From: Gemmatimonadota bacterium | Lineage (GTDB): Bacteria > Gemmatimonadota > Gemmatimonadetes > Gemmatimonadales > Gemmatimonadaceae | Direction: 5' to 3' | Assembly (NCBI GenBank): GCA_947463135.1 | Contig: CANHTA010000016.1 | Coordinates: 1 to 32,185, forward strand | Length of the DNA: 32,185 nt | Part shown: piece by piece, positions 12,438 through 32,185 of the stretch | Numbering within the stretch: position 1 is the stretch's first letter | Layout of the letters: each line of letters begins with the position of its first letter | Position numbers and translations under genes: made by a program | The notes under the pieces: generated by a model | The model's input: the letters and a program-made list of their open reading frames with translations, nothing else | What the model was told of the DNA's origin: nothing | Database searches by the model: none

Positions 12438-13793
12438 GTGAACACGCTGGTTGCGCTGTGGTGCATGCTGCTGGCCGCCGATCGCGTGGATGTCTTCGCG
12501 GGGGCGGGACCGTTTGTGCTCACGCCATTCTTGCTGCTTACGCCGTTGGTGGTGCTGTCCGCCATATGGGCACGGGCGCGGGCGGGGGAGCCTCTCGCGC
12601 AGCTGCAACTGGAAGGGCGCGCGCCGCTGTTGCGATGGCTGCTGCTGGCGCTCATCGCTGTGGTGACGTTGTCGGTGTTTGTGAGCATGGACGTGTCCCG
12701 GTCGGCTATGCGCGCCATGCAGCTGGTGGTCGTGGCCTTTGGAGCCTTTGCGGTACGCGCACTGGTGCCCCACGAGCGGTTGCGTGAGGCGCTGGTGCGG
12801 GGCGCGCGCTGGGGCATGGTGTTTTACGCCGTGATGGCGCTGTTCCAGATGGCGGCCTTACTGGGCGTGATACCCGATCGGCTCCCCAGTGCGGCGCTGC
12901 CCATGGTCAATCTGATGCCGAGTTTACACGGCGGGTTGGTGCCGCGATTGAGTGGTCCCGTGGTGGACTCAAACCGCTCTGGGCTGCTGCTTGTGCTGTA
13001 CGGCGCCCTCTTACTGCGGCATGACTGGCGCCGTCATGTTGGTATGCTGGCCTTAACAGCGCTGTTTTTGCTCATCACGTTGTCGCGATCGGCGGTGATG
13101 GCGGCCTGCGTGGCGTTGTGCTGGGAGGTGCTGGTGCATGGTCGCGCGCGTGGGCAGGCGGCGTTACGGCATGGCCTGTTGCGCGCGCCCTCGCGCGCGG
13201 TGCTGGGGGTTGGCGCTGTCACCTCCTTGTTTGTTGGCGGGGTGGCCGCGTCGCTGTTGCTGTCCCCTCGGTTGCGCGCCGAGGCCTCGCGTGTGCTCAC
13301 CCCCGTGACCGAACGGTTTACCATCGACCGCGGGTCGGGGGAGGATCATCTACGACTCTTGGCGCGCGGAGTGGAGACAGGTACCCGCTCGGTCCCGCTG
13401 GCGCTTCACGGCATGGGCTACGGCAGCGCGCATTTGGCGTTGCAGGATTTCTTCCCCGGCGATCGGTATGGAAATTTCCATTCCGTGTACGTCGGGATTT
13501 TCGCCGAATCGGGGATGGTGGCGCTGCTGGTGGTGCTGCTGCTCATCGGCGTGCCGATTGCGGGGGGCACGTCGCAGGGGGCGCTGGCCGTGGTGGTGGC
13601 GGTGTTCGGGGTGTTTTACGGCGCGCTGGCGGAGCCCACCTTTTGGGTGTCACTCGTGCTGGCCTGGCTACCACTTGAGGTGGCGGTGCTGGCGGTGAGC
13701 GGGGTGGCGCCGAATCCGGGTTGGAGGAGCGCGCGGCCGAAGGCGAGCAGCAACGCCACCGCGGTGCCCAGCACGGCCCCCAGCACGAGCTGA
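12438..13793 (+). CDS. O-antigen ligase / Wzy-type polymerase family membrane protein
   Basis: 451 aa with about 11 hydrophobic helices. The large periplasmic region contains LSGPVVDSNRSGLLLVLYGA in the middle, and later the family-typical GMGYGSAHLALQDFF, then YGNFHSVYVGIFAESGMVAL. The H-S-Y-V-G-I-F-A-E-S-G stretch is the conserved loop of the Wzy_C/O-antigen ligase superfamily. It either polymerises repeat units or ligates them; in a cluster with a flippase and Wzz, polymerase is the better guess. The GTG at 12438, seven bases after the preceding stop, starts the first helix; another GTG at 12411 is possible. The last 58 codons are antisense to the end of the Wzz gene. Confidence 0.85.
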   Translation: MNTLVALWCMLLAADRVDVFAGAGPFVLTPFLLLTPLVVLSAIWARARAGEPLAQLQLEGRAPLLRWLLLALIAVVTLSVFVSMDVSRSAMRAMQLVVVAFGAFAVRALVPHERLREALVRGARWGMVFYAVMALFQMAALLGVIPDRLPSAALPMVNLMPSLHGGLVPRLSGPVVDSNRSGLLLVLYGALLLRHDWRRHVGMLALTALFLLITLSRSAVMAACVALCWEVLVHGRARGQAALRHGLLRAPSRAVLGVGAVTSLFVGGVAASLLLSPRLRAEASRVLTPVTERFTIDRGSGEDHLRLLARGVETGTRSVPLALHGMGYGSAHLALQDFFPGDRYGNFHSVYVGIFAESGMVALLVVLLLIGVPIAGGTSQGALAVVVAVFGVFYGALAEPTFWVSLVLAWLPLEVAVLAVSGVAPNPGWRSARPKASSNATAVPSTAPSTS

Positions 13794-15232: not shown

Positions 15233-15235
15233 GCG

Positions 15236-16888: not shown

Positions 16889-17010
16889 CAGGCGCGCGCC
16901 GCCGAACCGGACGGCGTGTGCGCGGTATATTGACCACCATGACCATTGGGTTCGCGGTAATTCGAACGGATTGCGTTCATGTGCTGCACCGGGCATGGCG
17001 CGAATATAGC
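16889..17010. promoter_or_regulatory. Divergent promoter region between the two Wzi-like genes
   Basis: This is the most AT-rich piece of the area. TATATT occurs on the plus strand at 16925-16930, eight bases before an ATG (16939). It also occurs on the minus strand at 17008-17003, six bases before an ATG (16996). Both ATGs are in frame with the Wzi-like genes. Either these are leaderless starts, with the two genes overlapping head to head by 58 nt, or the region is purely regulatory and translation begins at 17011 and 16888. Confidence 0.45.
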
Positions 17011-18753: not shown

Positions 18754-19409
18754 TTGCGAATGAGTACGGCGATTACGCCAGCCAGCGACACAAACGACGA
18801 GAGCAACAAGGCGCTGTTCCGGTCCACCCAGTGGCGTCGGTCAACAAACAGCTGATCGCCCGAGGCGAGGGAGAAGGCGCCCGCTGACCGTGTGATGGAC
18901 AGATTTCGGGCCAACGTTTGTCCCTCACGGATAATGCGGATTCGATCGAGGGTGCCGTCTTGCGCCGCGCCTCCGGCGAGGGCCACCGCGCCCTCCACCC
19001 CAACGGAAGGTTCGAGCATATAAATGCCCGGTTTGAGCACGGCGCCAAGCACAAAGATGCGCCGGAGTGGTGTGATGTTCACCGATTCGTTGTTCAGGCT
19101 GCTACGGAATTGCGTAAAGAGCGAATCACGCAAAAGTCCCCACGGGGTGCGGGTAACCACGCGACGCCCAACCAAAGGGAGCACCGCATATCCACCTTCG
19201 TCCACGGGGAAATCGCCGGTGAGGGTGGGTTCGCGCCAAGCCTGCAGGCGAATCACGTCGCCCGGTTTCAGGCGCAAGGTGTCGCTGGCGATGGCCGCGG
19301 GGCGCGCGGGCGCGCCGCCGGCACTTTGCGCAGCGGCCGGTACGGCGGCCAACGGCGCGGCCATCAGCAGCAGTGCACTGATGGGGTGAACGATCCGACG
19401 GATTCGCAT
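18750..19409 (-). CDS. Wza-like polysaccharide export protein, short form
   Basis: 219 aa. The signal peptide is RIVHPISALLLMAAPLAAVP with AAAQ at the end. The Poly_export domain starts DTLRLKPGDVIRLQAWREPT, with FPVDEGGYAVLPLVGRRVV, and continues into one SLBB-like unit (RIFVLGAVLKPGIYMLEPSV with GAAQDGTLDRIRII). The C-terminus is a hydrophobic helix (SALLLSSFVSLAGVIAVLIR). There is no lipobox cysteine, and with a single SLBB unit it is much shorter than E. coli Wza, matching minimal export proteins. It should form the outer-membrane or periplasmic ring of the export channel. The ATG at 19409 follows a TAAGTT box by six bases. Confidence 0.88.
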   Translation of the reverse strand: MRIRRIVHPISALLLMAAPLAAVPAAAQSAGGAPARPAAIASDTLRLKPGDVIRLQAWREPTLTGDFPVDEGGYAVLPLVGRRVVTRTPWGLLRDSLFTQFRSSLNNESVNITPLRRIFVLGAVLKPGIYMLEPSVGVEGAVALAGGAAQDGTLDRIRIIREGQTLARNLSITRSAGAFSLASGDQLFVDRRHWVDRNSALLLSSFVSLAGVIAVLIRN

Positions 19410-19414
19410 GGTGA

Positions 19415-19421
19415 TAACTTA
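19415..19421. promoter_or_regulatory. Shared bidirectional -10 element TAACTTA
   Basis: On the plus strand TAACTT (19415-19420) is followed by five bases and the ATG at 19426. On the minus strand TAAGTT (19421-19416) is followed by six bases and the ATG at 19409. Both genes are therefore served by one overlapping seven-base element in a 16-bp intergenic gap, with room for neither a Shine-Dalgarno nor a leader. No good -35 is seen on either side. Confidence 0.5.
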
Positions 19422-19425
19422 TGCC

Positions 19426-20349
19426 ATGCCCACGGCCCTTGCATCTGGATCGTCAGCCGATCCCGTGGCGCCCCTACGGCGCCCTGTGGTGTGTGACCTC
19501 CGCGATGCGCGCACCGGTATCGGGCGGGTGGCGTTGGAGACGGTGCGGGCGTGGCAGCGGCTGTTTCCGGATGATCAGGTCACCGCACTCACATCGGGCG
19601 GCGGTCGGTATTCGTGGCGCGCGCAACGTGAGTGGCCGACGCTCCGGCGGGCGCACCCCAACGCCACCTGGGTCTGGTTTCACTGGGATATTCCGTGGTT
19701 CGGGGTGCCGCGTCGCAGTGTGGTGTATGTGCACGACCGCATTCACCGGCAGGAAGCCGGTTGGGGGAAGCGATGGGTGGCCGGTGCGTGGATGGCGCAT
19801 GCCTTCAGACGCGCCGGCTCCGTCGTCACCGTGAGTGAGGCCACCGCTCGTGAGCTGCCGGTTCCCGCCGTGGTGATTCCGAACGGTGTCTCAACCCGCT
19901 GGCAAAGTGGCTGGAGCCCTGCTGACTACCTGCTCACCGTTGGAGAACCCCGCCCGTACAAGAACATCGCGTTGGCGGAACAGGTGGCGCGCACGCTCGG
20001 GGTGCCGCACCGGCATGCCTGGCGTGTTGACGACGATGCGCTGCGGGCGCTGTACACGGGGGCGCGGGTGGTACTGATGCCGTCGCGCGCGGAGGGCTTC
20101 GGGTTGCCGCTACTGGAGGCGTTTTCCGCGGGGGCACCGGTGGTGGCCAGTGACATCCCCGCCCTGCGCGAAGTGGGCGGCGCACTGGCCACGTATGTGC
20201 CGGTTGACGACGTGGCCGGGTGGTGTGCGGCCGTGCAGGCCGCGTGGAGCAACGGGGGCGACCCGGTGCCGCGTATGCAGTGGGCGGCCGGTTTTACCTG
20301 GGATCGCGCGGCGACGCAGCTGCGGGCGGTGGTTGCCGCTCTGGGCTGA
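19426..20349 (+). CDS. Family 4 glycosyltransferase
   Basis: 307 aa. The N-terminal Rossmann half has VVCDLRDARTGIGRVALETV and a VVYVHDRIHRQEAGW segment. The C-terminal half shows LTVGEPRPYKNIALAEQVAR and the donor-binding block LMPSRAEGFGLPLLEAFSAG, then APVVASDIPALREV. The E-GFGLPLLEA motif is the GT4 EX7E signature. It likely adds a hexose or deoxyhexose to the repeat unit. I took the ATG at 19426 over the ATG at 19408 because the latter would place its codons across the -10 box. The 3' end overlaps the convergent GT4 gene by 56 nt. Confidence 0.88.
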   Translation: MPTALASGSSADPVAPLRRPVVCDLRDARTGIGRVALETVRAWQRLFPDDQVTALTSGGGRYSWRAQREWPTLRRAHPNATWVWFHWDIPWFGVPRRSVVYVHDRIHRQEAGWGKRWVAGAWMAHAFRRAGSVVTVSEATARELPVPAVVIPNGVSTRWQSGWSPADYLLTVGEPRPYKNIALAEQVARTLGVPHRHAWRVDDDALRALYTGARVVLMPSRAEGFGLPLLEAFSAGAPVVASDIPALREVGGALATYVPVDDVAGWCAAVQAAWSNGGDPVPRMQWAAGFTWDRAATQLRAVVAALG

Positions 20350-21457
20350 CGCCGGTCTCGCGCGACGCCCATGTCTCCTGCACCACCCGCGCGAGTGCGT
20401 GGTGGAATTGTTCGTCCGCGAACCGTTCGGCGTTTGCGCGGCAGTCGGCCGCTGTGGGGGCGACGCCGGCCTCAAAGGTTCGTATCGCCTGTGCGATGTG
20501 CTCCGCGGTGGGTTCGGCGAAGAAGGTGCCGGTATGGGCGCGCACCGTTTCCAGCGCGCCCCCCCGTCCGAGTGCGATCACCGGGGTACCGCACGCCTGC
20601 GCTTCTACGGGGAGAATGCCGAAGTCCTCTTCCGCGGCGAAGAGAAAGGCGCGCGCTGATTGCAGCGCGTGCCGCAGCTGCTCGTTGTTCACCCGCCCCA
20701 GCCACGTGACATTCGGGCCGGCGGCCGCCAGCACGCGCTTGCGGTCGGGGCCGTCGCCCACCACGACCAGCTGACGGTCGGGCAGGTGGCGAAACGCCTC
20801 GACAATGCGGTGCACCCGCTTGTAGCCCACCAAGCGAGAGGCCGTCACGTAGTGCGTGCCACGTGGCGTGCTCTCATCTACGTGAAAGAACGACGTATTC
20901 ACCGGCGGGTACACCACGGTGCTGTCCCGCTGGTACACTCGGCCGATGCGTTCGGCGATAAAGGCGGAGTTGGCAATGAACTGCGTGACCCGTTCAGCGC
21001 TCTGCCGGTCCCAGTTCCGCAGTCGGGCCAGCAGCGCGCGGGTGATGCGGCCGCTGATCCCACGCCCAAGCCCTGCTTCGTCGAGGTAGGTGGTTTCCAG
21101 ATCCCATGCATAGCGCATGGGAGAGTGGCAGTAGCACACGTGGACGGCTCCGGCCCGGGTGTGCACCCCTTTGGCCACCGCGTGAGAGCTGGAAATCACG
21201 AGGTCGAACGACGACAGGTCCAGGGCGCGCATTGCCCCGGGCATCAGGGGCAGGAGGCCACGATAGTAGTGCTGTACAAAGGGCAGGCGATTCAGCCACG
21301 AGCCGCGCGTGACGCCGAGGCCGAGGCGCGAACGGTCGCCGGGGGAGAGCCGGTCGAGGACACAGAACACCGGCGCGTCAGGAAAGGCGCGCACCAGCTG
21401 TTGCAGCACCATTTCGGAGCCGGCGATGGTGGTGAGCCACTCGTGCACCAGCGCCAC
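20294..21457 (-). CDS. Family 4 glycosyltransferase, mannosyl/rhamnosyltransferase-like
   Basis: 387 aa. It begins VALVHEWLTTIAGSEMVLQQ, the standard opening of the WbaZ/RfaB-like branch. AVHVCYCHSPMRYAWDLETT follows, then QFIANSAFIAERIGRVYQRD, VVYPPVNTSFF and YVTASRLVGYKRVHRIVEAF. The EX7E block is FLFAAEEDFGILPVEAQACG TPVIA. CHSPMRYAWD is common in capsule and O-antigen mannosyltransferases. The GTG at 21457 is the first start in frame. Residues after about 365 (SRETGVSPERQPPPAAASPR) are a disordered tail that is antisense to the end of the plus-strand GT4 gene. Confidence 0.88.
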   Translation of the reverse strand: MALVHEWLTTIAGSEMVLQQLVRAFPDAPVFCVLDRLSPGDRSRLGLGVTRGSWLNRLPFVQHYYRGLLPLMPGAMRALDLSSFDLVISSSHAVAKGVHTRAGAVHVCYCHSPMRYAWDLETTYLDEAGLGRGISGRITRALLARLRNWDRQSAERVTQFIANSAFIAERIGRVYQRDSTVVYPPVNTSFFHVDESTPRGTHYVTASRLVGYKRVHRIVEAFRHLPDRQLVVVGDGPDRKRVLAAAGPNVTWLGRVNNEQLRHALQSARAFLFAAEEDFGILPVEAQACGTPVIALGRGGALETVRAHTGTFFAEPTAEHIAQAIRTFEAGVAPTAADCRANAERFADEQFHHALARVVQETWASRETGVSPERQPPPAAASPRDPR

Positions 21458-21569
21458 CCGCGGCGAACCCGGGAGCGTGATCGGTGAGACCGTCAGGGAA
21501 ACCTCGAACGCAAAACGTGTTGGTAAACGGTGCGATCTGTCACAAGCTGATAGCTATGCTCCACTTTGC

Positions 21570-21599
21570 TTGCTGCTGCCGCCGGTGATGGAGTAGCTT
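21570..21599 (+). promoter_or_regulatory. Promoter of the sugar transferase operon
   Basis: TTGCTG (21570-21575), 18 bp and TAGCTT (21594-21599) are followed by only five bases and the GTG at 21605. This combines the TTGCnG-N18 promoter layout with leaderless spacing. The remaining 147-bp divergent gap (21458-21604) is comparatively AT-rich and contains the palindrome ATAGCTAT at 21550-21557. It probably also holds the promoter of the minus-strand GT4. Confidence 0.45.
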
Positions 21600-21604
21600 G
21601 CGCC

Positions 21605-22741
21605 GTGCCTGATTCTTCCAAAACCGACGGCGCGTCGAATGTACCGATCGACCGTCGCTCCAATGTGATGCATCGAAATCGGCGGGCGCTCTTGGTGGGG
21701 GAAAGCTACCATATCGCCCACGCGCTGACGCAGTCGGCGCAGTTCGCGAGCGCCGGGCTTTCGGTGGTGGACACGGTGCCGGTGAGCCGCGGCGAGGGTG
21801 GGTTTCCCCATGCGCGTATCCGGCAATCGGTGTTGCAGCATGGTGCCGACACGATTCTGGTGGCGGGTGATCTTACGCCGTCATCGCTCTCGCTGTTTGG
21901 GGAGTTGGCGGTGGTGCTGGGGTGCCGCCTGTGCACGCTTCCGGCGCAGGGGCAGGAGGAGACGCCCCGGTTCTTACCGGTGTGGGATATCGACGCCATC
22001 ACGGGGCGGATGCCATCGGCCAGCAGGAATGGTTTCCGCTTCCATGCGATGAAGCGCGGCGTGGACGTGCTGGGGGCGCTGGTGGGTTTGCTGGTGGCGT
22101 GGCCGGTGATCGTGCTGGCGGCGGTGGCGGTACGCCTTGATTCGCCGGGGCGCGCCTTTTTCGGGCATCTGCGCATTGGTCGTGGCGGGAAGCGTTTTCG
22201 CTGCTGGAAGTTGCGCACGATGCACACCGATGCCGAGCGGCGGCTGGAGTTGGAGGAGGCGTTGCGGGTGGATTATTTCGCCAACGACTTCAAGCTTCCC
22301 GAGGCGCAGGATCCACGGATTACGCGGGTAGGGCGGCTGTTGCGCAAAACCAGCCTTGACGAATTGCCACAGCTGCTGAATGTGCTGATGGGTGACATGT
22401 CGTTGGTGGGACCGCGTCCGGTGGTGGCGGAGGAGCTGTTGCGTTACCGCGGGGAGATTCTCACGCTGTTGTCGGTGCGTCCGGGGCTTACGGGTGCCTG
22501 GGCGGTCAACGGGCGGCACGATCTGGCGTATCCCGAGCGGGTGCAGGTGGAGTTGGGGTATGTCCACTCCCAGTCACTCTTCACGGATCTGTGCATTTTG
22601 GTGCGTACCGTCGGTGCGGTGCTTCACCCGGGTGCCGGTCGCCGGCTGGCGGCGGGGCAGAGCGCGGCCAATGTCGCCGAGCCGGCGCCGGCTCAGCGGC
22701 ACGAGGTTCCCGCGCCGTCGGGGCATAACGCGCTTGGCTGA
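21605..22741 (+). CDS. Polyprenyl-phosphate sugar-1-phosphate transferase (initiating enzyme)
   Basis: 378 aa. The enzyme loads the first sugar-1-phosphate onto the lipid carrier. One strong membrane hairpin ([20 protein letters not shown]) precedes the catalytic domain with [55 protein letters not shown] and [13 protein letters not shown], the full WbaP/PglC signature. The N-terminal 150 residues look like the nucleotide-binding-like domain of the larger members, but the four extra N-terminal helices of WcaJ/WbaP are absent. I chose the GTG at 21605 because a -10 box lies directly upstream. First gene of a four-gene operon. Confidence 0.92.
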
Positions 22742-22756
22742 TTCGCGGTAATCGTC

Positions 22757-23614
22757 ATGTCCTCTTCGCGTGATGTGCCCTCGGTGCGAGAGTGCTACGA
22801 GGCATCGCCGTACCTCTCGATCAAACACGCCAGCTACTTCGCGGTGTACGACGAGCTGCTGGCACCATACCGGGGTCGCCCCGTCACCTTTGTTGAAGTG
22901 GGCGTGCTTAACGGTGGCTCGTTGCACATGTGGCGTCGCTACTTCGGCGCACAGGCCCGCATTATCGGCGTGGATCTCAATCCGGCGGCGCGGCGCTGGG
23001 AAGCTGACGGCTTTGAGATTGTGATCGGCGATCAAGGGGAGCCGGCGTTCTGGGAGGCGTTCTTCGAACGGGTTGGCCCGGTGGACATTGTGCTGGATGA
23101 CGGCGGGCACACCAATCGCCAACAGCTGGTTACGGTGGTGCACAGTTTGCCCCACATCGCCGACGGCGGCCTGCTCATGGTGGAGGATGTGCACGCCAGC
23201 TATCTCCCGGAGTTCGGCAATCCCTCGCGCTGGTCGTTTCTGTCGTTCGCGCTGCAGGCGGTGCATGTGGTGAATGCACGCTTTCCCGGCGTTCCGGCAC
23301 CAACCACGGCCACGGGTAGGTTGCTGCGCGATACGGTGCGGGCGGTCACCTTTCACGAATCAATGGTCACCTTCCGCGTGGACCGCGCGCAGTGCGGCAT
23401 GAACACCCCGACCTCCAATGGCGGGGAAAGCTTAGCCGCCGCCGACTTCCGGTTGAAAGACGCGCGCAGTGCCACCTGGCGCCGTGTGGCAGGCGAGGGC
23501 AGTGTGTTGCGCACGCTGCCGCTGGTTGGGGGGCTGGTGCGCCAGCTGGCGCCGGCGGTGCACCGCTGGCGCCAACGCCGTGAAGCGGCGGCGTTAGCGC
23601 GCTACTTCGGCTAA
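22757..23614 (+). CDS. SAM-dependent sugar O-methyltransferase, MycE-like
   Basis: 285 aa. YLSIKHASYFAVYDELLAPY is followed by the SAM-binding motif FVEVGVLNGGSLHMWRRYFG, then ARIIGVDLNP, IVIGDQGEP, DIVLDDGGHTNRQQLVTVVH and GGLLMVEDVHASY. This arrangement, with acidic residues positioned for a metal ion, is that of macrocin/mycinamicin sugar O-methyltransferases and related cephalosporin-hydroxylase-like proteins. In this setting it most likely methylates a sugar of the repeat unit, possibly rhamnose; the position cannot be read. It lies 15 nt after the transferase gene and 7 nt before rmlD. Confidence 0.85.
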   Translation: MSSSRDVPSVRECYEASPYLSIKHASYFAVYDELLAPYRGRPVTFVEVGVLNGGSLHMWRRYFGAQARIIGVDLNPAARRWEADGFEIVIGDQGEPAFWEAFFERVGPVDIVLDDGGHTNRQQLVTVVHSLPHIADGGLLMVEDVHASYLPEFGNPSRWSFLSFALQAVHVVNARFPGVPAPTTATGRLLRDTVRAVTFHESMVTFRVDRAQCGMNTPTSNGGESLAAADFRLKDARSATWRRVAGEGSVLRTLPLVGGLVRQLAPAVHRWRQRREAAALARYFG

Positions 23615-23621
23615 CAGCCAG

Positions 23622-24503
23622 ATGATCTTTCTCCTTGGCGCCCAGGGGCAGGTGGGTTACGAACTGCAGCGGACCCTGGCCACTCTGGGGCCGCTGCACG
23701 CCACGAGTCGTGCCACGCTTGACTTAACAAACGAGGCGGCGATCCGGGCTGCGGTGCGCGAGATGGCGCCGCGCTGGATTGTGAATGCGGCGGCGTATAC
23801 TGCCGTGGATGCGGCCGAGTCCGATCCGGCCGCGGCGCACTGGTTGAATGCGGAGGTTCCGCGGATCTTGGCCGAGGAGGCGGTGCGGACGGGTGCGTGG
23901 CTGGTGCACTATTCCACCGACTACGTGTTTGATGGGACCGGCACGCGAGGCTACGTAGAGACCGACCCGGTGGCGCCGCAGAGTGTGTACGGGCGCACGA
24001 AGGCGCTGGGCGAGGCGGCGGTGCGGGCGGTGTGTGCGCAGCACCTGATTTTTCGTGTGGCGTGGGTGTACGGGGTGCGGGGGCGGAATTTTCTGCTCAC
24101 CGTGCGACGTCTTGCCGGCGGCGGTGGCCCGTTGCGGATTGTGGACGATCAGGTGGGCGTGCCGACGTGGTCGCGCGCGATTGCCGAGGCCACAGCGCAG
24201 GTGATGGCGCAGCGACCGGGGGATGCGTTGGCGGGCACGTACCACATGGCCGGCGGTGGGTCCTGCTCATGGCATGGCTTTGCCCAAGCTATTCTGGCGG
24301 CCGATGCCAGCGCGGCGGGTACCGCGCCGGTGGCGGTGCTTCCGATTGCCACCAGTGCGTATCCCACGCCCGCCACGCGACCGGCCTGGTCGGTGCTCAA
24401 CGCCAGCAAGTTACACGACACGTTCGGCGTGGTGCTTCCGGCGTGGGATCGGCAACTCGCCCTCTGTCTCGACGCCCCGGTGGCGGTGGGGAGCGTGGCC
24501 TGA
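23622..24503 (+). CDS. rmlD: dTDP-4-dehydrorhamnose reductase
   Basis: Last step of dTDP-L-rhamnose synthesis. At 293 aa it is the normal length. The nucleotide-binding loop is LLGAQGQVGYEL, followed by IVNAAAYTAVDAAESDP, the catalytic STDYVFDGT and YGRTKALGE (Tyr/Lys pair), then RVAWVYG, DDQVGVPTWSRAIAE and YHMAGGGSCSWHGFAQAI. The C-terminal YPTPATRPAWSVLNASKL is diagnostic for RmlD. The other rml genes (A, B, C) are not in the window and must lie elsewhere. The end of the gene overlaps or abuts the following epimerase. Confidence 0.94.
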   Translation: MIFLLGAQGQVGYELQRTLATLGPLHATSRATLDLTNEAAIRAAVREMAPRWIVNAAAYTAVDAAESDPAAAHWLNAEVPRILAEEAVRTGAWLVHYSTDYVFDGTGTRGYVETDPVAPQSVYGRTKALGEAAVRAVCAQHLIFRVAWVYGVRGRNFLLTVRRLAGGGGPLRIVDDQVGVPTWSRAIAEATAQVMAQRPGDALAGTYHMAGGGSCSWHGFAQAILAADASAAGTAPVAVLPIATSAYPTPATRPAWSVLNASKLHDTFGVVLPAWDRQLALCLDAPVAVGSVA

Positions 24504-25459
24504 TCGCGCTGGTGTCGGGCGCGAATGGCTTTATTGGCCGTCACCTCGTTGACCGTCTGCAGAGGGACGGTGTGGAGGTGCGCCGCGTGGTGCGTCCGTT
24601 GCCCTCGGCCGATGTATACGCGCGGGACGCGATCTGGGCGGGGGTGACGCATGTGTTTCACCTCGCGGCGCGGACGCGTGCCCCGCGGGCCGCCGCGCTG
24701 ATTGAGGCCAACGTGCAGTTTACCGAGCGTCTGGCGCAGGCGGCATGCGCGCAGGCGGCGGTGCCGCGGTTTGTGTTTGTGTCCTCCTTGGCGGCGATGG
24801 GACCCGCGCCCAATGCCGATACGCCGGTAACGCCGCAGCAGGAGCCGTGTCCCGTGGAGGCGTACGGGGCGAGCAAGCGGGCCGCAGAGCAGTTGCTGCA
24901 GGGGATGGCGGCGCTTCCGCTGGTGATTGTGCGACCGGCGGCGGTGTACGGTGCGCATGACCGTGACCTGCTGGCGGTGTTCCGGCAGGTGCGGCACCCG
25001 CTGCAGTTGCGCCCCACCCCGGGGTGGTACCGATTCACGCTGAATTCCGTGCACGACGTGGTGGATGCCCTCGTGGCGGCGGCAACGGTACCGGCGGCTT
25101 ATGCCGCCAGCGCGCGGGCGGGGTACCTGCTGAGCGGGGAGGATGTGAGCTGGGACGCGTTGTACCAGCGGATTGACCGCGCGGTGGCTACGGCGCGCGG
25201 TGTGGGGATGCGGCATGCCCCATCGGTGCGTGTGCCGGCGCCGTTGCTGGCGCTGGCGGGGCGTGTTGGTGCCAAGTGGGGGGAATGGACGGGGCGCACA
25301 CCGCTTGCCACCCCCGACAAGATTGTGCTGGGCGCGCAAGCGGGGTGGACCTGTCGCGACGACCGGTTCCTTCGTGAAGCGGGGTGGGCGCCGCGTGTGC
25401 CGCTTGATGCGGGATTGCTTGAGGTGGCGCGGTGGTACCGCGCACAGGGGTGGATCTGA
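24500..25459 (+). CDS. NAD-dependent epimerase/dehydratase (extended SDR)
   Basis: About 319 aa. The NAD-binding strand and loop IALVSGANGFIGRHLVDRL are followed by THVFHLAARTRAP, FVFVSSLAAMGPAP, the catalytic YGASKRAAE (Tyr/Lys) and LVIVRPAAVYGAHDRDLLAV. The substrate is probably a nucleotide sugar but cannot be specified. Start is unusual. A CTG at 24500 lies six bases after GGGGAG and keeps the first beta strand. The first conventional start, GTG at 24512, would delete half of that strand and is 18 bases from the same Shine-Dalgarno. With CTG the gene overlaps rmlD by 4 nt. Confidence 0.85.
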   Translation: MIALVSGANGFIGRHLVDRLQRDGVEVRRVVRPLPSADVYARDAIWAGVTHVFHLAARTRAPRAAALIEANVQFTERLAQAACAQAAVPRFVFVSSLAAMGPAPNADTPVTPQQEPCPVEAYGASKRAAEQLLQGMAALPLVIVRPAAVYGAHDRDLLAVFRQVRHPLQLRPTPGWYRFTLNSVHDVVDALVAAATVPAAYAASARAGYLLSGEDVSWDALYQRIDRAVATARGVGMRHAPSVRVPAPLLALAGRVGAKWGEWTGRTPLATPDKIVLGAQAGWTCRDDRFLREAGWAPRVPLDAGLLEVARWYRAQGWI

Positions 25460-25470
25460 CGCCGCGTCAG
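25456..25470. terminator. Small palindrome spanning two convergent stop codons
   Basis: CTGACG (25456-25461) and CGTCAG (25465-25470) pair around a CCG loop. The TGA of the plus-strand epimerase and the TGA of the minus-strand lipoprotein are located in the two arms. There is no T-tract, so it would be at best a weak bidirectional terminator. Confidence 0.3.
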
Positions 25471-26618
25471 TAGCGCACCGCAGTGGGGGTGGCATACGCG
25501 GCCCCCAGCCCGAGCGGCGCCACGAGTCCAATGCGCACGCCGCCGCGGCGCAGCGCCCCCACGTAGAGTCCGGCGGGAAGGGTACGGCCGGCTACGCGGA
25601 GCCCCGGGTAGAGATTGAGCGCGGCCACGGTTTCGTAATCCAGCCGTACGAGCAGCGACGCGAGCAGCGAGCCGTTACGGTCGAGGAAGAGGCCGGCGTT
25701 GGGGCGGAGTTCCACCGTGCGCAGGTCCACGGTGGAATCGAGCACCACCACCCGCACGGCATCGGCGCCGAGGCCCACGGTAACGGCATGTTGCGCGCCC
25801 ACGTTGCGCGAGAGCCCCAGGAGGGTGGAGACACCGAACAGGTAGGCCGCGCGCCAGCGTTGCGTGCGGGGAATCGGGGCGCGGATCAGGTACTGCTGTC
25901 CGGCGTTCTCCAAGGTCTGTCCGGGGATGGTGAACACCGGTTGTTGCGCCCAGCTGGTGAGCTCGAGCTGCTCGCTGAAGAGGCGCTGCAGGCGCTGGTT
26001 ACGCGCGAGCAGATGGCCCAGTGGGTCGAAGATCAGCAGGTCGGCCACGGCGTCGATGCTGCGCGGGGAGGCGCGCTCGGTCATTTCGTTCAGCACGTGC
26101 GAGGCGGTCATGACGCCAAACGAGGCCCACGCGGGGTGCGGCACACCGTGCGCCTCAAACCATTCGGTCATCCGCACGCTGACCATGCCGCTGCCGAGTA
26201 GGTGAAACTGGTAGTTCGGCACCCAACCACCACCACCGCTGCCTTTGGTGCTCAGCGGCAGCAGTTCGTGCTTCACGAAGCGCGCCCAGCCGTATTGGCG
26301 CACCACCTGGTCGGCGTGACGGAGGGAGCTCGCGACGTTGCGCGCGGTCACGCCGTATGGCAATTGCAGCACGCGCCGGTCGGCATCGGTGCCGCGCAGC
26401 AGGTCAAAGCCCTCATTCACGATCTGGGTGAGGGGGTTGAACTGTTGCTCGCTTCCGTAGTGCCGGCCCTTGTAAAATCGCCCCGGCGGCGGGGCGTGTG
26501 CTGTATCGGGTACAGCGCTTTGCGCCGGGCGCAGACGCCCCGTGCTGCACCCCGAGGCGCCCACCAGCACCAGGCTCAAGAGCAGCCGGTGGGACGCGCG
26601 GGGCCACGACCGTGACAC
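25467..26618 (-). CDS. Putative lipoprotein of unknown function, partner of the desaturase gene
   Basis: 383 aa from a GTG. SHRLLLSLVLVGASGC is a good type II signal (ASGC), giving a lipid-anchored Cys. The first half of the mature protein is helical, with FYKGRHYGSEQQFNPLTQIV, WARFVKHELLPL, a Gly-rich GSGGGGWVPNYQFHLLGSG, WFEAHGVPHPAWASFGVMTA, and FDPLGHLLARNQRLQRLFSE. The second half alternates like a small barrel or beta sheet. I do not recognise the family. It follows the desaturase by 17 nt, with AGGA upstream of its start, so they are cotranscribed. A role in handling or exporting the lipid product is only a guess. Confidence 0.7.
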   Translation of the reverse strand: MSRSWPRASHRLLLSLVLVGASGCSTGRLRPAQSAVPDTAHAPPPGRFYKGRHYGSEQQFNPLTQIVNEGFDLLRGTDADRRVLQLPYGVTARNVASSLRHADQVVRQYGWARFVKHELLPLSTKGSGGGGWVPNYQFHLLGSGMVSVRMTEWFEAHGVPHPAWASFGVMTASHVLNEMTERASPRSIDAVADLLIFDPLGHLLARNQRLQRLFSEQLELTSWAQQPVFTIPGQTLENAGQQYLIRAPIPRTQRWRAAYLFGVSTLLGLSRNVGAQHAVTVGLGADAVRVVVLDSTVDLRTVELRPNAGLFLDRNGSLLASLLVRLDYETVAALNLYPGLRVAGRTLPAGLYVGALRRGGVRIGLVAPLGLGAAYATPTAVRY

Positions 26619-26635: not shown

Positions 26636-27595
26636 TCAGGGCGTCCCCGACGAGACAGGCGGCCGGCGCACCATTCGCGAAAAGAGCGTGAGTTCGCGAT
26701 CACACAAAAAGCGCAGCAGCAACAGTGACCAGGAGCGATGTGCCGCTAAGGCGTTGTAGGCGGAGGGCACCATGGCGCGCAGCGCCGGAAGCCGGTTCCA
26801 GGGAATGGAGGGGAAATCATGGTGCTCGTTGTGGTACCCCACATTCAGCGCGAGCCGGTTGAACGGGCCGTAGTAGCTGAACGTCTCCTGCTGGCCGGCG
26901 GTGAGGAAATGCTCTTGAATCCACCGGGCACCCAAGGGGTGCAGCCCCACCGAAAACAGGAACGACAGCAGCAGAAACCCCGTGCCCCGGGGACCCAGCG
27001 CGACCCAGATGAGCGCGTTTGCCGCCAGCTGCACGATCCAGTTGAGCACCACCCATCGATCCACCAGCGGCATGGCGCGTACCCGCGACAGCCGAAGCAC
27101 CTGAAAGAGCGGGAACAACAGCAACCACAGCGCCTTCCCCGGAAACCAGCCGTGCATCAGACGGGCTTCCCATCGACTCGGCACATCGAGATCCTGTGCG
27201 TAGTCCCCCTGATGCGTGTGGTGCTTGCGATGAAAGCGACGAAATGACATGGCGCTTGGCAGCAGCTGCGGGACATTCGCCACGATCGCGGCCACCTTGT
27301 TCCATCGTGTGCGGGCAAAGACGAGGTTATGCGTACACTCGTGAATCACGACGAACAGCGCGTGACTGATGATCGCGCCCACCGTGTAGGCTATCACGCC
27401 AATCACCCACCACGGCGCGTGCTGCAGGAGCGCTGCCACGATGAGCTGGGCCACTACGAGGGTGAGCAGGATGGCGGCCGTGGCCGGCGTGCGACCGATC
27501 AGCGACCGGATCTCCGGATGGGTTCGCAACAGGGCGCCCGCACGCGCCGCATGCGGCTCGCGCGCGTCTCGATATTGGAAGTCCGGTGCCGCCAT
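26636..27595 (-). CDS. Fatty-acid desaturase, sphingolipid delta-4 desaturase (DES/DEGS)-like
   Basis: 319 aa, the size of animal and fungal DES proteins. Its layout follows them closely. The N-terminal FQYRDAREPHAARAGALLRT leads to HPEIRSLIG, two helix pairs, and three His boxes: HECTH (85-89), HRKHH (122-126) and HNEHH (255-259). The stretch FSYYGPFNRLALNVGYHNEH with HDFPSIPWNRLP is nearly diagnostic of the sphingolipid delta-4 group. The enzyme would introduce a 4,5-trans double bond into a long-chain base or ceramide. It is divergent from the acyl-AMP ligase/ACP/oxoamine synthase operon, which could supply that substrate. The ATG follows TAGAAT by five bases (leaderless type). Confidence 0.88.
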   Translation of the reverse strand: MAAPDFQYRDAREPHAARAGALLRTHPEIRSLIGRTPATAAILLTLVVAQLIVAALLQHAPWWVIGVIAYTVGAIISHALFVVIHECTHNLVFARTRWNKVAAIVANVPQLLPSAMSFRRFHRKHHTHQGDYAQDLDVPSRWEARLMHGWFPGKALWLLLFPLFQVLRLSRVRAMPLVDRWVVLNWIVQLAANALIWVALGPRGTGFLLLSFLFSVGLHPLGARWIQEHFLTAGQQETFSYYGPFNRLALNVGYHNEHHDFPSIPWNRLPALRAMVPSAYNALAAHRSWSLLLLRFLCDRELTLFSRMVRRPPVSSGTP

Positions 27596-27659
27596 GCGGA
27601 ATTCTACTACAACGGTTATACTCTGCGCTTATGCAAATGTCGTGGGCGGTCATTTCAAG
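27596..27659. promoter_or_regulatory. Divergent promoter region of the lipid locus
   Basis: Minus strand: TAGAAT (27606-27601) lies five bases before the desaturase ATG. Plus strand: TATACT (27617-27622) lies eight bases before an ATG at 27631 that opens a 10-codon frame. No strong -35 boxes are evident. The two -10 boxes are only 10 bp apart, so expression of the two arms is likely linked or mutually exclusive. Confidence 0.45.
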
Positions 27660-27663
27660 ATGA
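27631..27663 (+). CDS. Possible leader peptide MQMSWAVISR before the ketosynthase
   Basis: A 10-codon frame starts eight bases after the TATACT box. Its TGA (27661-27663) overlaps the ATG of the ketosynthase gene as ATGA. The ketosynthase start has no Shine-Dalgarno, so coupled re-initiation from this leader would explain how it is translated. Too short to prove as coding; an alternative is a direct ketosynthase start at GTG 27642. Confidence 0.3.
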   Translation: MQMSWAVISR

Positions 27664-28901
27664 GTGGTCGTCGCGCCGTCGTGACCGGTGTAGGCCTCAT
27701 TACTCCCTGCGGGATTGGCACTGAGGCCACGTGGGACCAGCTGGTGGCCGGGCGGAGCGGTGTTGCTCCCATCACGCTCTTTGATGCCTCGGCGCTCGCC
27801 ACGCGCTTCGCGGCGGAGGTGCCCAACTGGGCCCCCGAGCAGCACATGGACCGCAAGCAGGCTCGGCGTCTCGATCGCTACCAGCAATTCGCGCTGGTTG
27901 CGGCTTCCATGGCCATGCAGGATGCCGCGTTGGATATGACGCGCACGGATGCCACCCGCGCGGCGGTGATTGTGGGCTCGTGCGTTGGTGGACTGGCTGG
28001 TGCCGAGGTCGCCTCGCAGGAGGCGCATACACGTGGGCCTGGCGCGGTGTCGCCGTTTTTCATTTTGAATGTGTTGATCAACATGGCGGCCAGTCACCTC
28101 TCTATCCATTTCGGATTTAAGGGGCCGGCGTGGTCGCTGAGCAGTGCCTGTGCCACCAGCGCCCATGCCATTGGCGAAGCCAAGCGACTGATTGAGCGTG
28201 ACGAGGCCGATGTGGTGCTGGCGGGCGGCGCGGAAGCACCGATTGGCTTCATGTGCATGGCCGGCTTTAATGCCATGCGCGCCCTGTCCACGCGCAATGA
28301 CGATCCGGCAGCGGCGAGTCGACCGTTTGACGTGGCGCGCGATGGATTTGTGCTGGGTGAAGGGGCGGGGATTCTGGTGATCGAGTCGGAGGCGCATGCG
28401 CGTGCGCGTGGCGCACGGATTCATGCCGATCTCGTGGGGTATGGGGCCACCGCCGATGCCCATCATGTCACGGCGCCGCCGGCTGATCATGAAGGGGCAC
28501 AGCGCTGTATGCGTGCGGCGCTCGCCGACGCACGGCTTTCCCCCGCTGATGTTGGCTATGTGAACGCGCACGGTACGGGCACTCCGCTTGGTGATCCGGC
28601 CGAAGCGCGCGCCATCGCGGCGGTGTTCGGCGACCACGCGCGTCGCGTTGCGGTGTCGTCCACGAAGTCGATGACCGGGCACCTCACCGGTGCCGCAGGA
28701 GCGATGGAAGCGGTCGCCAGTATCCTCACGCTCACGCGTGAGATTGCCCCGCCCACCATCAACCTCACGGCGTTGGACCCCGAGGTCACCCTCGATTGCA
28801 TTCCGAACCACGCCCGTGCGCTACGCACCGACGCCGTGATGAGCAATGCCTTCGGATTTGGCGGCACCAATGCCTGTCTGGTGTTCGCCCGGCATGGGTA
28901 A
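27660..28901 (+). CDS. Beta-ketoacyl-ACP synthase, FabF-like
   Basis: 413 aa, normal FabF size. MSGRRAVVTGVGLITPCGIG opens the thiolase fold. The nucleophile is Cys164 in SSACATSAHAIGEA, with His304 in VNAHGTGTPLGD, Lys336 in STKSMTG and His341 completing the catalytic set, so condensing activity should be intact. Its neighbours suggest a dedicated role in making or extending the acyl chain for the lipid locus, rather than being the housekeeping FabF, though the latter cannot be excluded. It overlaps the next gene by 8 nt. Confidence 0.88.
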   Translation: MSGRRAVVTGVGLITPCGIGTEATWDQLVAGRSGVAPITLFDASALATRFAAEVPNWAPEQHMDRKQARRLDRYQQFALVAASMAMQDAALDMTRTDATRAAVIVGSCVGGLAGAEVASQEAHTRGPGAVSPFFILNVLINMAASHLSIHFGFKGPAWSLSSACATSAHAIGEAKRLIERDEADVVLAGGAEAPIGFMCMAGFNAMRALSTRNDDPAAASRPFDVARDGFVLGEGAGILVIESEAHARARGARIHADLVGYGATADAHHVTAPPADHEGAQRCMRAALADARLSPADVGYVNAHGTGTPLGDPAEARAIAAVFGDHARRVAVSSTKSMTGHLTGAAGAMEAVASILTLTREIAPPTINLTALDPEVTLDCIPNHARALRTDAVMSNAFGFGGTNACLVFARHG

Positions 28902-31900
28902 CGCCGCGCCCGTCGCGTCACCGGAGGTCGTGCCCACTCCCGCGCCCACCACGTTCGCGCAGCTGCTGGTGCATCGGGCGGCCACGATGGGGGATCGTGT
29001 GGCCTATCGGATGTTCGATGCCCGCGGTGAGGAACGCGGGCAGCGCAGCTATGGGGCGCTGTACGGCGACGCGCTGGCGCTCGCCACGCAGCTACGGACC
29101 TTCACCTCGCCCGGTGACCGCGTGGCGCTGTTGCTGCCGCCCGGTTTGGCCTACGTCACCGCCCTCTTCGCCTGCCTCTTGGCGCAGGTGGTGGCGGTGC
29201 CCGCCCCGCCGCTGCGAGGACGTCGTGACAGCACACGGGTGCCGCGTCTGTTGACCGACGCGGCGGCGACGGCCGCGTTGGTGGCGGTCGGCGAGCGCGC
29301 TCGGCTTGCCGCCCTGCCGTGGTGGTCCCCGGCGGTCGCGCTGCTGGAAGTGGACGAGGACGGCGTACCGGCAGCGACAGCGGATCGTTCGGTGGCACAC
29401 GAATGGCCGGAGCCCGAGCCGGATGATCTCGCGATTTTGCAGTACACTTCCGGTTCCACACGCGCCCCGCGTGGTGTCATGCTGACGCATCGCCAGCTGC
29501 TGGCGAATGCGCGAGCCATCGACCAGGCGAACGGCTTGCGCGAGGGCGAGGTGGTGGTGTTCTGGCTGCCGCCCTATCACGACATGGGGCTCATTGGCGG
29601 GATTCTGCAGCCGTTGTATATAGGGGCGACCACGGTGCTGATGACACCTGCCGCCTTCCTGCAACGGCCACTCACGTGGCTGGAACTGCTGCATCGTTAC
29701 CGCGCGGTCTCCACGGCAGCGCCTGACTTTGCCTGGAAACTGTGTGTGGAGCGCACCACGGCAGCGGAACGTGCGGCACTCGACCTGTCGGCGATGCGGG
29801 TGGCGTTCAACGGCGCAGAGCCGATTCACTACGCAACGCAGCAGCGCTTCGTGGAGGCGTTCGCCTGTGCGGGGCTTGATCCTCGGGTGTTTGTCCCCTG
29901 TTACGGCTTGGCCGAGGCTACGCTGCTGGTGACCAGTGCGGCGAAGGGCACCGCCACGCGTACGGCGCGCGTTGATGCCGTCGCGCTGCGTGAGGGGCGG
30001 CTGGTCATCGCCGCTCCGCGCTCCACCGAACCCACGGTCACGCTGGTCAGCTGCGGTGCACCGCCCGATGGTGGTGAGGTGATCATTGTGCAACCGGACA
30101 GTGCCACCCGCTGTCCGGATGGCATGGAAGGGGAGATCTGGGTACGCGGGGACATGGTCGCCCGCGGCTACTGGGGCCATCCAACGGAAACCGCTGCCGT
30201 CTTCGGGGCGCGTTGTGTTGGCGACAGCGCGAACAGCGCCCCGTGGCTCCGCACCGGGGACCTCGGTGTTTGGCACGAGGGACAGTTGTTCGTTACCGGT
30301 CGCCGGTCGGATGTGATCATCCTGCAGGGACGCAACATTCATCCGCAGGACGTGGAATGGGTTGCCGCTGAGGCACACCCCGCGCTCACGCTGGGTGGTT
30401 GTGTGGCGTTCGGCATGGCGGACGGCGCTCACCCTACGGCCCCCGGTGAGGCCGGCATCATGGTGTTGGTGGAGGTGGCGCGCAGCAGTCACGCCAGCAA
30501 CGGTGAGATCATGTCCGCGGTGCGGACTGCGGTGGCTGAGGTGGTTGGTTTGGCGGTGGAGGTGACGTGCGTGCGTGAGCACAGCCTGCCGCGCACCACG
30601 AGTGGCAAACGTCAGCGCCGTGCGGCACAGGGGGCGTGGTGTGATGGTACGCTCACCGCGCGTGAGGAACCGCGTGGTGAGCCGCGTGACGAGCGGGCGC
30701 GTGGTGTTTCTCCCATGGAGACGCTGTCCGCTGAGCCCGCGGGAGGTGGCGAGCGGTCTCTTCAGGACTGGGCACTCCGCTGGATTGCCACCGACACCGG
30801 CCAGCGCGTCCCCTTGGATGCGGCGCGCCCTCTGGCCGATCTCGGGCTCGATTCCATGGCCATTTTGCGCTTCCATCTGGCGCTTGAGGGGCGGTTGCAG
30901 CGACGGTTGCCGGAGCGCCTGTGCGTGGAGGCGCCGTCGGTGGCGGCGTTGTGTGCCGGGCTTGCGTGGCCCCTGGTGCCCGCGCTGAGCGAGACGGTGA
31001 TGTCGGACCCGGCGGCTCCTGCAGCGGATGCCACGGCGGCTGAGGTGGCGTCGTGGGCCGATGTGGCCGCGTGGCCTGAGGTGCGGGCCACCCTGGAGCG
31101 GGTGGAGCAGTTGCAGGGTGCGTTTTTTCCGCTGATTGAAGGGCAGGACGGCATGGTGGTGCAGCACGACGGCCAGCGTTTACTGCACTTTGCCGGCTAT
31201 GACTACCTTGGCTTCGCCGGTGATCCGCGGGTCCGCGCGGCGGCGGCTGCTGCGGCTACCACGTGGGGCACCTCGGCGTCAGCGAGCCGGCTGGTCTCGG
31301 GCGAGCGGCCGGTGCACGGCGCACTGGAGGCAGCCCTCGCGTCGCTCCTTGGCACGGCCGATGCCCTCACGTTTGTCAGTGGCCATGCCACGGCGGTGTC
31401 GGTGATTGCGCACTTGTGCGGCCCGGGCGACTTGGTGTGTTGTGACGAGCGGCTGCATAACAGCGGCTGGCTTGGCGCGCGGTCCTCTGGTGCCCGGGTA
31501 CTGGTGTTTCCGCATAACGATGCGGCGGCGTTGGATCGCCTGCTGGGCGCCGAGCGTCGGCACGCCCGTCGGGTGGTGGTGGCGATGGAGAGCCTGTACA
31601 GCACCGATGGCGACGTGCCTGATCTGGCGGCGTTTGTTGCGGTGAAGCGCCGTCATGGTGCGTTGCTGTTTGTGGATGAGGCGCACGGCACGGGGGTGTT
31701 GGGGGCAACCGGTCGTGGGATCGCCGAGGCGAGTGGTGTGGATCCTCTGGCGGTGGATATCTGGATGGGTACGCTGAGTAAGGCGTTGGCCAGCTGTGGG
31801 GGCTTCATTGCCGGTTCCGCGGCACTGGTGCAATACCTGCGCGCCACCTGTCCGGCTTTTGTCTTCAGTGTGGGGATGCCCCCCGCCACCGCGGCGGCGG

Positions 31901-32185
31901 CGCTGGAGGCGGTGCGTTTGTTGCGGGCGGAGCCGGAGCGGGTGCGCAGGTTGTGGGCACGGGCGGCCAGCTTCCGCACCGCGGCGGCCGCGGCCGGGCT
32001 CCCTGTGCGCACCGACGCGGCCGCGCGGCATATCCCCATTGTGCCGCTGGTAACCGGTTCGTCATCGCGGGCGCTGGCGCTGGCGGCGGCGTTGGAGCGT
32101 GACGGCGTGTTGGCGGCGCCCATGATTCCGCCCTCGGTACCCGAACGGGGGGCGCTGGTGCGTTTCTTCCTGTCGGCTGCCCATA
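28894..32185 (+). CDS. Trifunctional fatty acyl-AMP ligase / acyl carrier protein / alpha-oxoamine synthase (3' end beyond window)
   Basis: Open for 1,097 codons to the window edge. Residues 1-580 are a fatty acyl-AMP ligase: YTSGSTRAPRGVMLTH, FWLPPYHDMGLIGGILQPLY, FNGAEPIHYATQQRF, YGLAEATLLV and LRTGDLGVWHEGQLFVTGRR. After a charged linker, about 620-690 is an ACP with the phosphopantetheine serine Ser654 in LGLDSMA. From about 730 it is a PLP enzyme of the oxoamine synthase family: YDYLGFAGDPRVR, TSASASRLVSGERPVHGALE, FVDEAHGTGVLGATGRG, and Lys963 in TLSKALASCGGFIAG. Predicted chemistry: free fatty acid to acyl-AMP, then acyl-ACP, then decarboxylative condensation with an amino acid (serine in sphingolipid synthesis) to a 3-keto amino lipid. 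About 50 C-terminal residues appear to be missing. Confidence 0.9.
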   Translation, partial: MGNAAPVASPEVVPTPAPTTFAQLLVHRAATMGDRVAYRMFDARGEERGQRSYGALYGDALALATQLRTFTSPGDRVALLLPPGLAYVTALFACLLAQVVAVPAPPLRGRRDSTRVPRLLTDAAATAALVAVGERARLAALPWWSPAVALLEVDEDGVPAATADRSVAHEWPEPEPDDLAILQYTSGSTRAPRGVMLTHRQLLANARAIDQANGLREGEVVVFWLPPYHDMGLIGGILQPLYIGATTVLMTPAAFLQRPLTWLELLHRYRAVSTAAPDFAWKLCVERTTAAERAALDLSAMRVAFNGAEPIHYATQQRFVEAFACAGLDPRVFVPCYGLAEATLLVTSAAKGTATRTARVDAVALREGRLVIAAPRSTEPTVTLVSCGAPPDGGEVIIVQPDSATRCPDGMEGEIWVRGDMVARGYWGHPTETAAVFGARCVGDSANSAPWLRTGDLGVWHEGQLFVTGRRSDVIILQGRNIHPQDVEWVAAEAHPALTLGGCVAFGMADGAHPTAPGEAGIMVLVEVARSSHASNGEIMSAVRTAVAEVVGLAVEVTCVREHSLPRTTSGKRQRRAAQGAWCDGTLTAREEPRGEPRDERARGVSPMETLSAEPAGGGERSLQDWALRWIATDTGQRVPLDAARPLADLGLDSMAILRFHLALEGRLQRRLPERLCVEAPSVAALCAGLAWPLVPALSETVMSDPAAPAADATAAEVASWADVAAWPEVRATLERVEQLQGAFFPLIEGQDGMVVQHDGQRLLHFAGYDYLGFAGDPRVRAAAAAAATTWGTSASASRLVSGERPVHGALEAALASLLGTADALTFVSGHATAVSVIAHLCGPGDLVCCDERLHNSGWLGARSSGARVLVFPHNDAAALDRLLGAERRHARRVVVAMESLYSTDGDVPDLAAFVAVKRRHGALLFVDEAHGTGVLGATGRGIAEASGVDPLAVDIWMGTLSKALASCGGFIAGSAALVQYLRATCPAFVFSVGMPPATAAAALEAVRLLRAEPERVRRLWARAASFRTAAAAAGLPVRTDAAARHIPIVPLVTGSSSRALALAAALERDGVLAAPMIPPSVPERGALVRFFLSAAH

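What the first reader, a model, noticed from the sequence alone, without database searches (positions are those of the whole stretch)
26636..27595. Eukaryote-like sphingolipid delta-4 desaturase in a bacterial operon
The protein shares with animal DEGS1/fungal DES its length, the PH-AR...HPEIR-L N-terminus, the spacing of three His boxes, and the SYYGP-N-L--NVGYHNEHHDFP block. Most bacterial desaturases of similar size lack that block. Bacterial sphingolipids are usually reported as saturated (sphinganine type), so a true delta-4 activity would be notable and raises the question of inter-domain transfer.
Basis: partly seen in the sequence, partly recalled or inferred. Interest (0 to 1): 0.72.

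Follow-up and report, generated by a model that had tools for sequence, protein, structure and literature searches.

The report
Bacterial sphingolipid (dihydroceramide-type) desaturase gene
A soil-type bacterium carries a gene closely related to the human enzyme that turns dihydroceramide into ceramide, next to a set of genes for making bacterial sphingolipids, which suggests that some bacteria make the unsaturated backbone usually thought of as eukaryotic.

Summary
The 319-aa ORF at 26636-27595 (-) matches Pfam Lipid_DES (PF08557) above its cut-off and FA_desaturase, with all three His boxes intact. It is not in the same operon as its neighbours: 64 bp separate it from a divergent KS, FAAL-ACP-SPT-like fusion. 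On contig C168, which very probably follows the window contig, comes a GNAT-type ceramide-synthase-like gene. A CerR-like dehydrogenase lies nearby. A Saprospiraceae MAG has FA-hydroxylase, SPT, GNAT, DES and SDR in one tight operon. DES co-occurs with ceramide genes: within the window's genus 2/2 versus 0/28; in Gemmatimonadota 13/14 versus 156/284; in Bacteroidota 20/22 versus 90/176 (SPT). The gene is not a recent eukaryotic acquisition: it belongs to a large bacterial clade (at least 536 relatives), split 100/100 from eukaryotic DES (sequences recalled from memory). Three Bacteroidota genomes carry a second, eukaryote-like type. Best reading: a dihydroceramide/sphinganine desaturase, probably Delta4. 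The double-bond position is inferred, not shown. Some DES-bearing genomes lack a recognisable SPT, and one histidine conserved in eukaryotic DES is arginine here. No report of bacterial Delta4 activity turned up in the open-access library searched.

The parts
26636..27595 (-). DES-family desaturase, 319 aa; Lipid_DES N-terminal domain (residues 4-37), membrane FA_desaturase domain (61-281), His boxes at residues 85-89, 122-126, 255-259
   Evidence: Pfam PF08557 32.8 bits (cut-off 23) and PF00487 101 bits; His boxes; model mean pLDDT 86.3
27596..27659 (.). 64-bp divergent intergenic region between the desaturase and the KS gene; likely site of the two promoters (inferred)
   Evidence: sequence
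27660..28901 (+). FabF-type beta-ketoacyl-ACP synthase, 413 aa, conserved in the sphingolipid clusters of family members
   Evidence: NCBIfam TIGR03150 574 bits, above cut-off (run on the frame from 27519); homologues at 67-68% next to FAAL-ACP-AOS and the GNAT gene in L101 and L146
28894..32184 (+). FAAL-ACP-AOS fusion (fatty acyl-AMP ligase, acyl carrier protein with LGLDSM site, serine-palmitoyltransferase-like alpha-oxoamine synthase); cut by the contig end, C-terminus on contig C168
   Evidence: Pfam AMP-binding, PP-binding, Aminotran_1_2; AOS best PDB hits are SPT 3a2b/8guh; contig ends at 32185; continuation on C168
24488..25459 (+). extended SDR (epimerase family), candidate CerR-type 3-oxo-sphinganine / oxidised-ceramide reductase
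   Evidence: PF01370; homologues adjacent to or near DES/SPT genes in L101, L084, L109, L035
25467..26618 (-). 383-aa putative lipoprotein immediately downstream of the desaturase (17-bp gap); function unknown, two homologues lie near DES in G013 (L114)
   Evidence: ORF, no Pfam or NCBIfam match, homologues in L114 at 33-35%

Best explanation
The protein is a bacterial member of the sphingolipid desaturase (DES) family. It is a membrane enzyme with three histidine boxes that should hold two irons and use O2 plus electrons from an unidentified carrier (inferred from the fold family). The neighbouring genes make its substrate: the FAAL domain adenylates a fatty acid and loads it on the fused ACP; the fused SPT-like domain condenses it with an amino acid, most likely serine; the CerR-like SDR and the GNAT-type ceramide synthase reduce and N-acylate it to dihydroceramide. 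The desaturase then most likely introduces a 4E double bond into the sphingoid base, giving a ceramide (sphingosine-type) backbone. Shown here: family membership, intact His boxes, gene linkage, co-occurrence and phylogeny. Inferred: each enzymatic activity, the serine and dihydroceramide substrates, and the Delta4 position.
For: Lipid_DES domain above its cut-off. Intact His boxes and 50 positions invariant with recalled eukaryotic DES. Divergent SPT-like fusion and KS beside it, with the ceramide-synthase-like gene on C168, which begins with the AOS C-terminus. L084: FA-hydroxylase - SPT (NCBIfam equivalog 647 bits, cut-off 640) - GNAT - DES - SDR, consecutive on one strand. L101: DES divergent from FAAL-ACP-AOS - GNAT - KS - SDR. 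G013: DES directly divergent from a truncated GNAT gene. G124: SDR next to DES. Co-occurrence: genus 2/2 vs 0/28 (p=0.0023), Gemmatimonadota 13/14 vs 156/284 (p=0.0035), Bacteroidota SPT 20/22 vs 90/176 (p=0.0002). The SPT-like gene adjoins the GNAT gene in eight further DES-bearing Gemmatimonadota.
Against: No activity data. Six of 22 DES-bearing genomes examined lack a strong SPT, and G264 and G335 lack the ceramide-synthase-like gene. In most Bacteroidota DES is not linked to sphingolipid genes. A histidine invariant in eukaryotic DES (...GHF...EH) is Arg224 in the whole bacterial clade, which could mean altered chemistry or position. The window's AOS falls below the NCBIfam cut-offs for both SPT and BioF, so its amino-acid substrate is uncertain. 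Fisher tests ignore shared ancestry of genomes.
Confidence: 0.62

Rival explanations
1. The enzyme acts on sphingolipids but hydroxylates C4 (phytoceramide-type product) or does both, as animal DEGS2 does.
For: Recalled DEGS2 belongs to the same family and is about as close to the window protein as DEGS1 is (37% vs 36%). Arg224-Trp225 replaces His-Phe in the bacterial clade. Phytoceramides occur in soil lipidomes (PMC9969633).
Against: The basis is family resemblance only; no residue tested here separates the two activities. A separate FA_hydroxylase gene sits in the L084 operon, so hydroxylation there may have its own enzyme.
Confidence: 0.14
2. The enzyme desaturates another position or chain, for example the N-acyl chain of ceramide, another carbon of the base, or a related 1-deoxy or sulfonated base.
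For: DES occurs in some genomes without a recognisable SPT. The AOS amino-acid specificity is unproven. Class-specific residues differ from eukaryotes. In Caulobacter a DesA-family protein acts on the sphingolipid acyl chain (PMC11324152).
Against: The Lipid_DES N-terminal domain and the full signature block are retained. The AOS matches SPT (196 bits) far better than cysteate acyltransferase (131 bits).
Confidence: 0.17
3. It is an ordinary acyl-lipid desaturase unrelated to sphingolipids that happens to lie beside these genes.
For: In most Bacteroidota it stands alone, and some carriers lack SPT.
Against: Recurrent linkage in two phyla and co-occurrence at three taxonomic scales. Other desaturases of the same genomes are very distant from this clade.
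Confidence: 0.06
4. The window gene is a recent acquisition from a eukaryote.
For: It shares the eukaryotic signature block; carriage in the genus is patchy (2 of 30 genomes).
Against: It lies in a bacterial clade split 100/100 from eukaryotic DES, 36% identical to recalled DEGS1 and nearest to a genus-mate and a family member (97/93). GC and GC3 are like those of neighbouring genes.
Confidence: 0.02

Closest known systems
Eukaryotic sphingolipid Delta4-desaturase / dihydroceramide desaturase (DES; human DEGS1, DEGS2, Drosophila ifc, Arabidopsis DES)
   Same: Lipid_DES plus FA_desaturase domains, similar length, His-box spacing, SYYGP...NVGYHNEHHDFP block, 50 shared invariant positions with recalled sequences
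   Different: About 36% identity to recalled DEGS1; separate bacterial clade; Arg224-Trp225 for His-Phe and Trp266 for Gly; N-terminus MAAPDF lacks the Met-Gly start of the animal enzymes; activity untested
Caulobacter ceramide genes aasR-cerR-acpR-spt plus cerS (PMC11324152)
   Same: Same set of roles: acyl-ACP synthetase, special ACP, SPT, SDR dehydrogenase, N-acyltransferase (assigned here by domain and synteny)
   Different: Here ligase, ACP and SPT-like domain are one polypeptide, a FabF-type KS is added, and a DES-family desaturase lies beside them; Caulobacter proteins were not compared directly
PKS/AOS-derived sphingolipids, PfSgaAB of Pseudomonas fluorescens MYb115 (PMC12134224)
   Same: An AOS supplied by dedicated chain-building machinery makes the sphingoid base
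   Different: There a monomodular PKS feeds the AOS; here a FAAL-ACP-AOS fusion with a discrete FabF-type KS
Bacteroidota serine palmitoyltransferase (NF047600; 3a2b)
   Same: Closest solved relative of the window's AOS
   Different: Stand-alone enzyme; the window's AOS scores 253 bits against a 640-bit cut-off

Membership tests
Sphingolipid Delta4-desaturase (DES) family | Lipid_DES N-terminal domain (PF08557) above the curated cut-off | tested here: met
   32.8 bits vs 23; recalled DEGS1 gives 74.3
Sphingolipid Delta4-desaturase (DES) family | FA_desaturase domain with three histidine boxes at DES spacing | tested here: met
   PF00487 101 bits; boxes at 85, 122, 255
Sphingolipid Delta4-desaturase (DES) family | Groups with eukaryotic DES apart from other desaturases | tested here: met
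   Compact clade against ten distant desaturases from the same genomes; rooting branch weak (74/67), long outgroup branches; eukaryotic rows recalled from memory
Sphingolipid Delta4-desaturase (DES) family | All histidines conserved in eukaryotic DES are kept (not treated as defining: whether the odd one is needed for activity is not known to me) | tested here: not met
   Three boxes, H219 and H229 kept; the His of GHF is Arg224 in the bacterial clade
Sphingolipid Delta4-desaturase (DES) family | Introduces a 4E double bond into sphinganine or dihydroceramide | not testable with these tools
   Needs biochemistry or lipidomics
Eukaryotic DES clade proper | Lies inside or next to eukaryotic sequences in a tree | tested here: not met
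   Window clade split 100/100 from eukaryotes plus three Bacteroidota sequences
Bacterial ceramide (SPT-bCerS-CerR) gene cluster | SPT or SPT-like AOS adjoining a GNAT-type N-acyltransferase | tested here: met
   C16 to C168 junction; L101, L084, L146, L147
Bacterial ceramide (SPT-bCerS-CerR) gene cluster | Direct homology of the GNAT and SDR proteins to Caulobacter CC_1154 and CC_1164 | not tested
   Caulobacter sequences were not fetched; assignment rests on synteny with SPT, a weak GNAT Pfam hit in L084 and L035 and none in the L101 protein, and the epimerase family

The most novel reading that the evidence does not exclude
Many bacteria of the Bacteroidota/Gemmatimonadota group make true 4E-unsaturated (sphingosine-type) ceramides with a DES clade of their own, and eukaryotic dihydroceramide desaturase shares a common, possibly bacterial, ancestor with it; a small eukaryote-like branch in Bacteroidota records a further transfer between the domains.
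Probability: 0.35. Interest if true: 0.82.

Novelty: new variant of a known kind. Interest (0 to 1): 0.58.

Why it matters
A review states that bacteria make dihydroceramide, as distinct from the ceramide of eukaryotes (PMC10191378). The 4E double bond is commonly taken as a mark of eukaryotic sphingolipids. A DES-family enzyme wired into bacterial ceramide operons would undercut that rule, offer a possible source for mono-unsaturated sphingoid bases seen in microbial settings (about half of the Black Sea ceramide structures have one double-bond equivalent in the base, though that zone is anoxic and DES should need O2; PMC11334938), supply prokaryotic models of a human disease enzyme (DEGS1) for whose family no PDB sequence match was found here, and bear on the origin of the eukaryotic pathway.

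Tried and rejected
1) Transfer from a virus: no relative in viral contigs by alignment, pattern or recalled DEGS1; BFVD gives only generic desaturase folds. 2) Solved-structure match by sequence: none at E<=1; by fold only generic membrane desaturase/AlkB-type matches, so the model supports the fold class, not the substrate. 3) Carotenoid ketolase/hydroxylase or DesA: NCBIfam scores far below cut-offs. 4) Reading the neighbouring SDR as hopanoid HpnA: 106 vs 368 bits, and it tracks DES/SPT loci. 5) Reading the AOS as BioF: below cut-off; best PDB hits are SPT and it is fused to FAAL-ACP. 6) Literature for bacterial Delta4-desaturases or Gemmatimonadota sphingolipids: nothing found in ten searches of the open-access library; subscription papers were not covered.

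Full report
Observation. The ORF is real: 26636-27595 on the minus strand, 319 aa. Pfam finds FA_desaturase (9.1e-29) and, at residues 4-37, Lipid_DES PF08557 (4.8e-8, 32.8 bits, cut-off 23), the domain that marks the sphingolipid Delta4-desaturase family. His boxes are HECTH (85), HRKHH (122) and HNEHH (255).

Anatomy. The gene is divergent, 64 bp away, from a FabF-type KS (27660-28901) that overlaps a fusion gene starting at 28894: fatty acyl-AMP ligase, acyl carrier protein (LGLDSM site) and alpha-oxoamine synthase with the SKALA lysine motif. The window contig C16 ends exactly at 32185, inside the AOS. Contig C168 of the same genome starts with a peptide that fits the missing AOS C-terminus (HTEEQIATAVAVLARAWHTTTGEPL, stop), shares 5 nt (CCATA) with the window's end, and continues with a GNAT-type protein; I infer that C168 follows C16. 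A similar order is found in a family member (L101): DES divergent from FAAL-ACP-AOS, GNAT, KS, SDR, and FAAL-ACP-AOS plus GNAT recur in G256 (with KS) and G124. In the window a homologous SDR lies at 24488-25459. A 383-aa putative lipoprotein of unknown function follows the desaturase.

What the neighbours are. The AOS is nearest to Bacteroidota-type SPT in the PDB (3a2b, 196 bits), then BioF/Kbl enzymes (182-190), with cysteate acyltransferase far behind (131), yet it is below NCBIfam's cut-offs for both SPT and BioF. The GNAT protein has no strong Pfam match, but it lies directly beside SPT in Bacteroidota (G317, G319, G427, G525, G529) and beside the SPT-like AOS in eight further DES-bearing Gemmatimonadota. 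In Caulobacter the ceramide genes are an acyl-ACP synthetase, a special ACP, SPT, a dehydrogenase (CerR) and an N-acyltransferase (CerS) (PMC11324152), and Spt, bCerS and CerR often cluster (PMC11334938). Hence the assignment here, by synteny and fold family, not by direct comparison with Caulobacter proteins.

Link of DES to sphingolipid genes. L084 (Saprospiraceae MAG) carries FA-hydroxylase, SPT (NCBIfam equivalog above cut-off), GNAT, DES and SDR on one strand, end to end or overlapping. In L035 SDR, GNAT and SPT lie 7-11 kb from DES; in G124 the SDR adjoins DES; in G013 DES is directly divergent from a GNAT gene cut by the contig end. Among 30 genomes of the window's genus only G000 and G013 have DES, and only these have the GNAT gene (Fisher 0.0023). 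In a phylum sample 13 of 14 DES genomes have it against 156 of 284 others (0.0035); in a Bacteroidota sample 20 of 22 DES genomes have a strong SPT against 90 of 176 (0.0002). These tests do not correct for relatedness. Against a strict link: most Bacteroidota DES genes stand alone, six of 22 selected DES genomes lack a strong SPT, and G264 and G335 lack the GNAT gene.

Phylogeny. Genome contigs holds at least 536 relatives; the best 80 are 49-58% identical and come from Bacteroidota, Ignavibacteria, Gemmatimonadota, Acidobacteriota, KSB1 and Dadabacteria. The window groups with G013 and G262 (97/93) inside this clade, which is split 100/100 from recalled eukaryotic DES plus three Bacteroidota sequences (L150-L152) that are 43-49% identical to DEGS1. 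Other desaturases from the same genomes are very distant; the root is weak (74/67). A recent eukaryotic source for the window gene is thus disfavoured, and the direction of any ancient transfer is open. Class differences include Arg224-Trp225 for eukaryotic His-Phe and Trp266 for Gly.

Structure. AlphaFold2 on 30 relatives gives mean pLDDT 86.3, pTM 0.86. The best PDB folds are chains of chloroplast Ycf2/Orf2971-FtsHi complexes (TM 0.66; chain identity not stated in the output) and AlkB alkane monooxygenase. This supports a di-iron membrane desaturase/hydroxylase fold and does not discriminate substrate.

Verdict. Most likely a bacterial sphingolipid desaturase, probably Delta4, acting on the product of its neighbour genes; the C4 position is an inference from family. 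What is notable is the context: a review says bacteria make dihydroceramide rather than ceramide (PMC10191378), and no bacterial Delta4-desaturase was found in the open-access library (ten searches), though subscription papers were not searched.

Noticed in passing
L150:9813-10763, L151:9112-10212, L152:5082-6065 (G529, G427, G525): Three Bacteroidota genomes carry a second, eukaryote-like DES, 43-49% identical to recalled human DEGS1 and grouped with eukaryotes at 100/100; candidates for transfer between the domains, in either direction.
   Followed up: partly
28894-32184 and L145 (contig C168): FAAL, ACP and SPT-like domain fused in one polypeptide, a compact version of Caulobacter AasR-AcpR-Spt, with a FabF-type KS nearby in most; seen in four genomes of the family.
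   Followed up: partly
25467-26618 and L114:3419-5505: Putative lipoprotein family without any Pfam match downstream of DES in the window and, in two copies, near DES in G013; possibly linked to lipid transport.
   Followed up: no
window 9000-25500 and L145: The sphingolipid genes sit inside a polysaccharide locus (glycosyltransferases, Bac_transf, Wzi, SLBB export, RmlA/B/C/D-like genes); 28 of 30 genomes of the genus lack DES and the GNAT gene, which suggests a variable island.
   Followed up: partly
L163, L164, L167, L168: A deep-branching subgroup of bacterial DES (100/99) in Bacteroidota, 46-48% identical to the window protein.
   Followed up: no
G320, G323, G326 (Puia, Flaviaesturariibacter, Sediminibacterium): Genomes with DES but no strong SPT match and only weak GNAT paralogues; the substrate there is unexplained.
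   Followed up: partly
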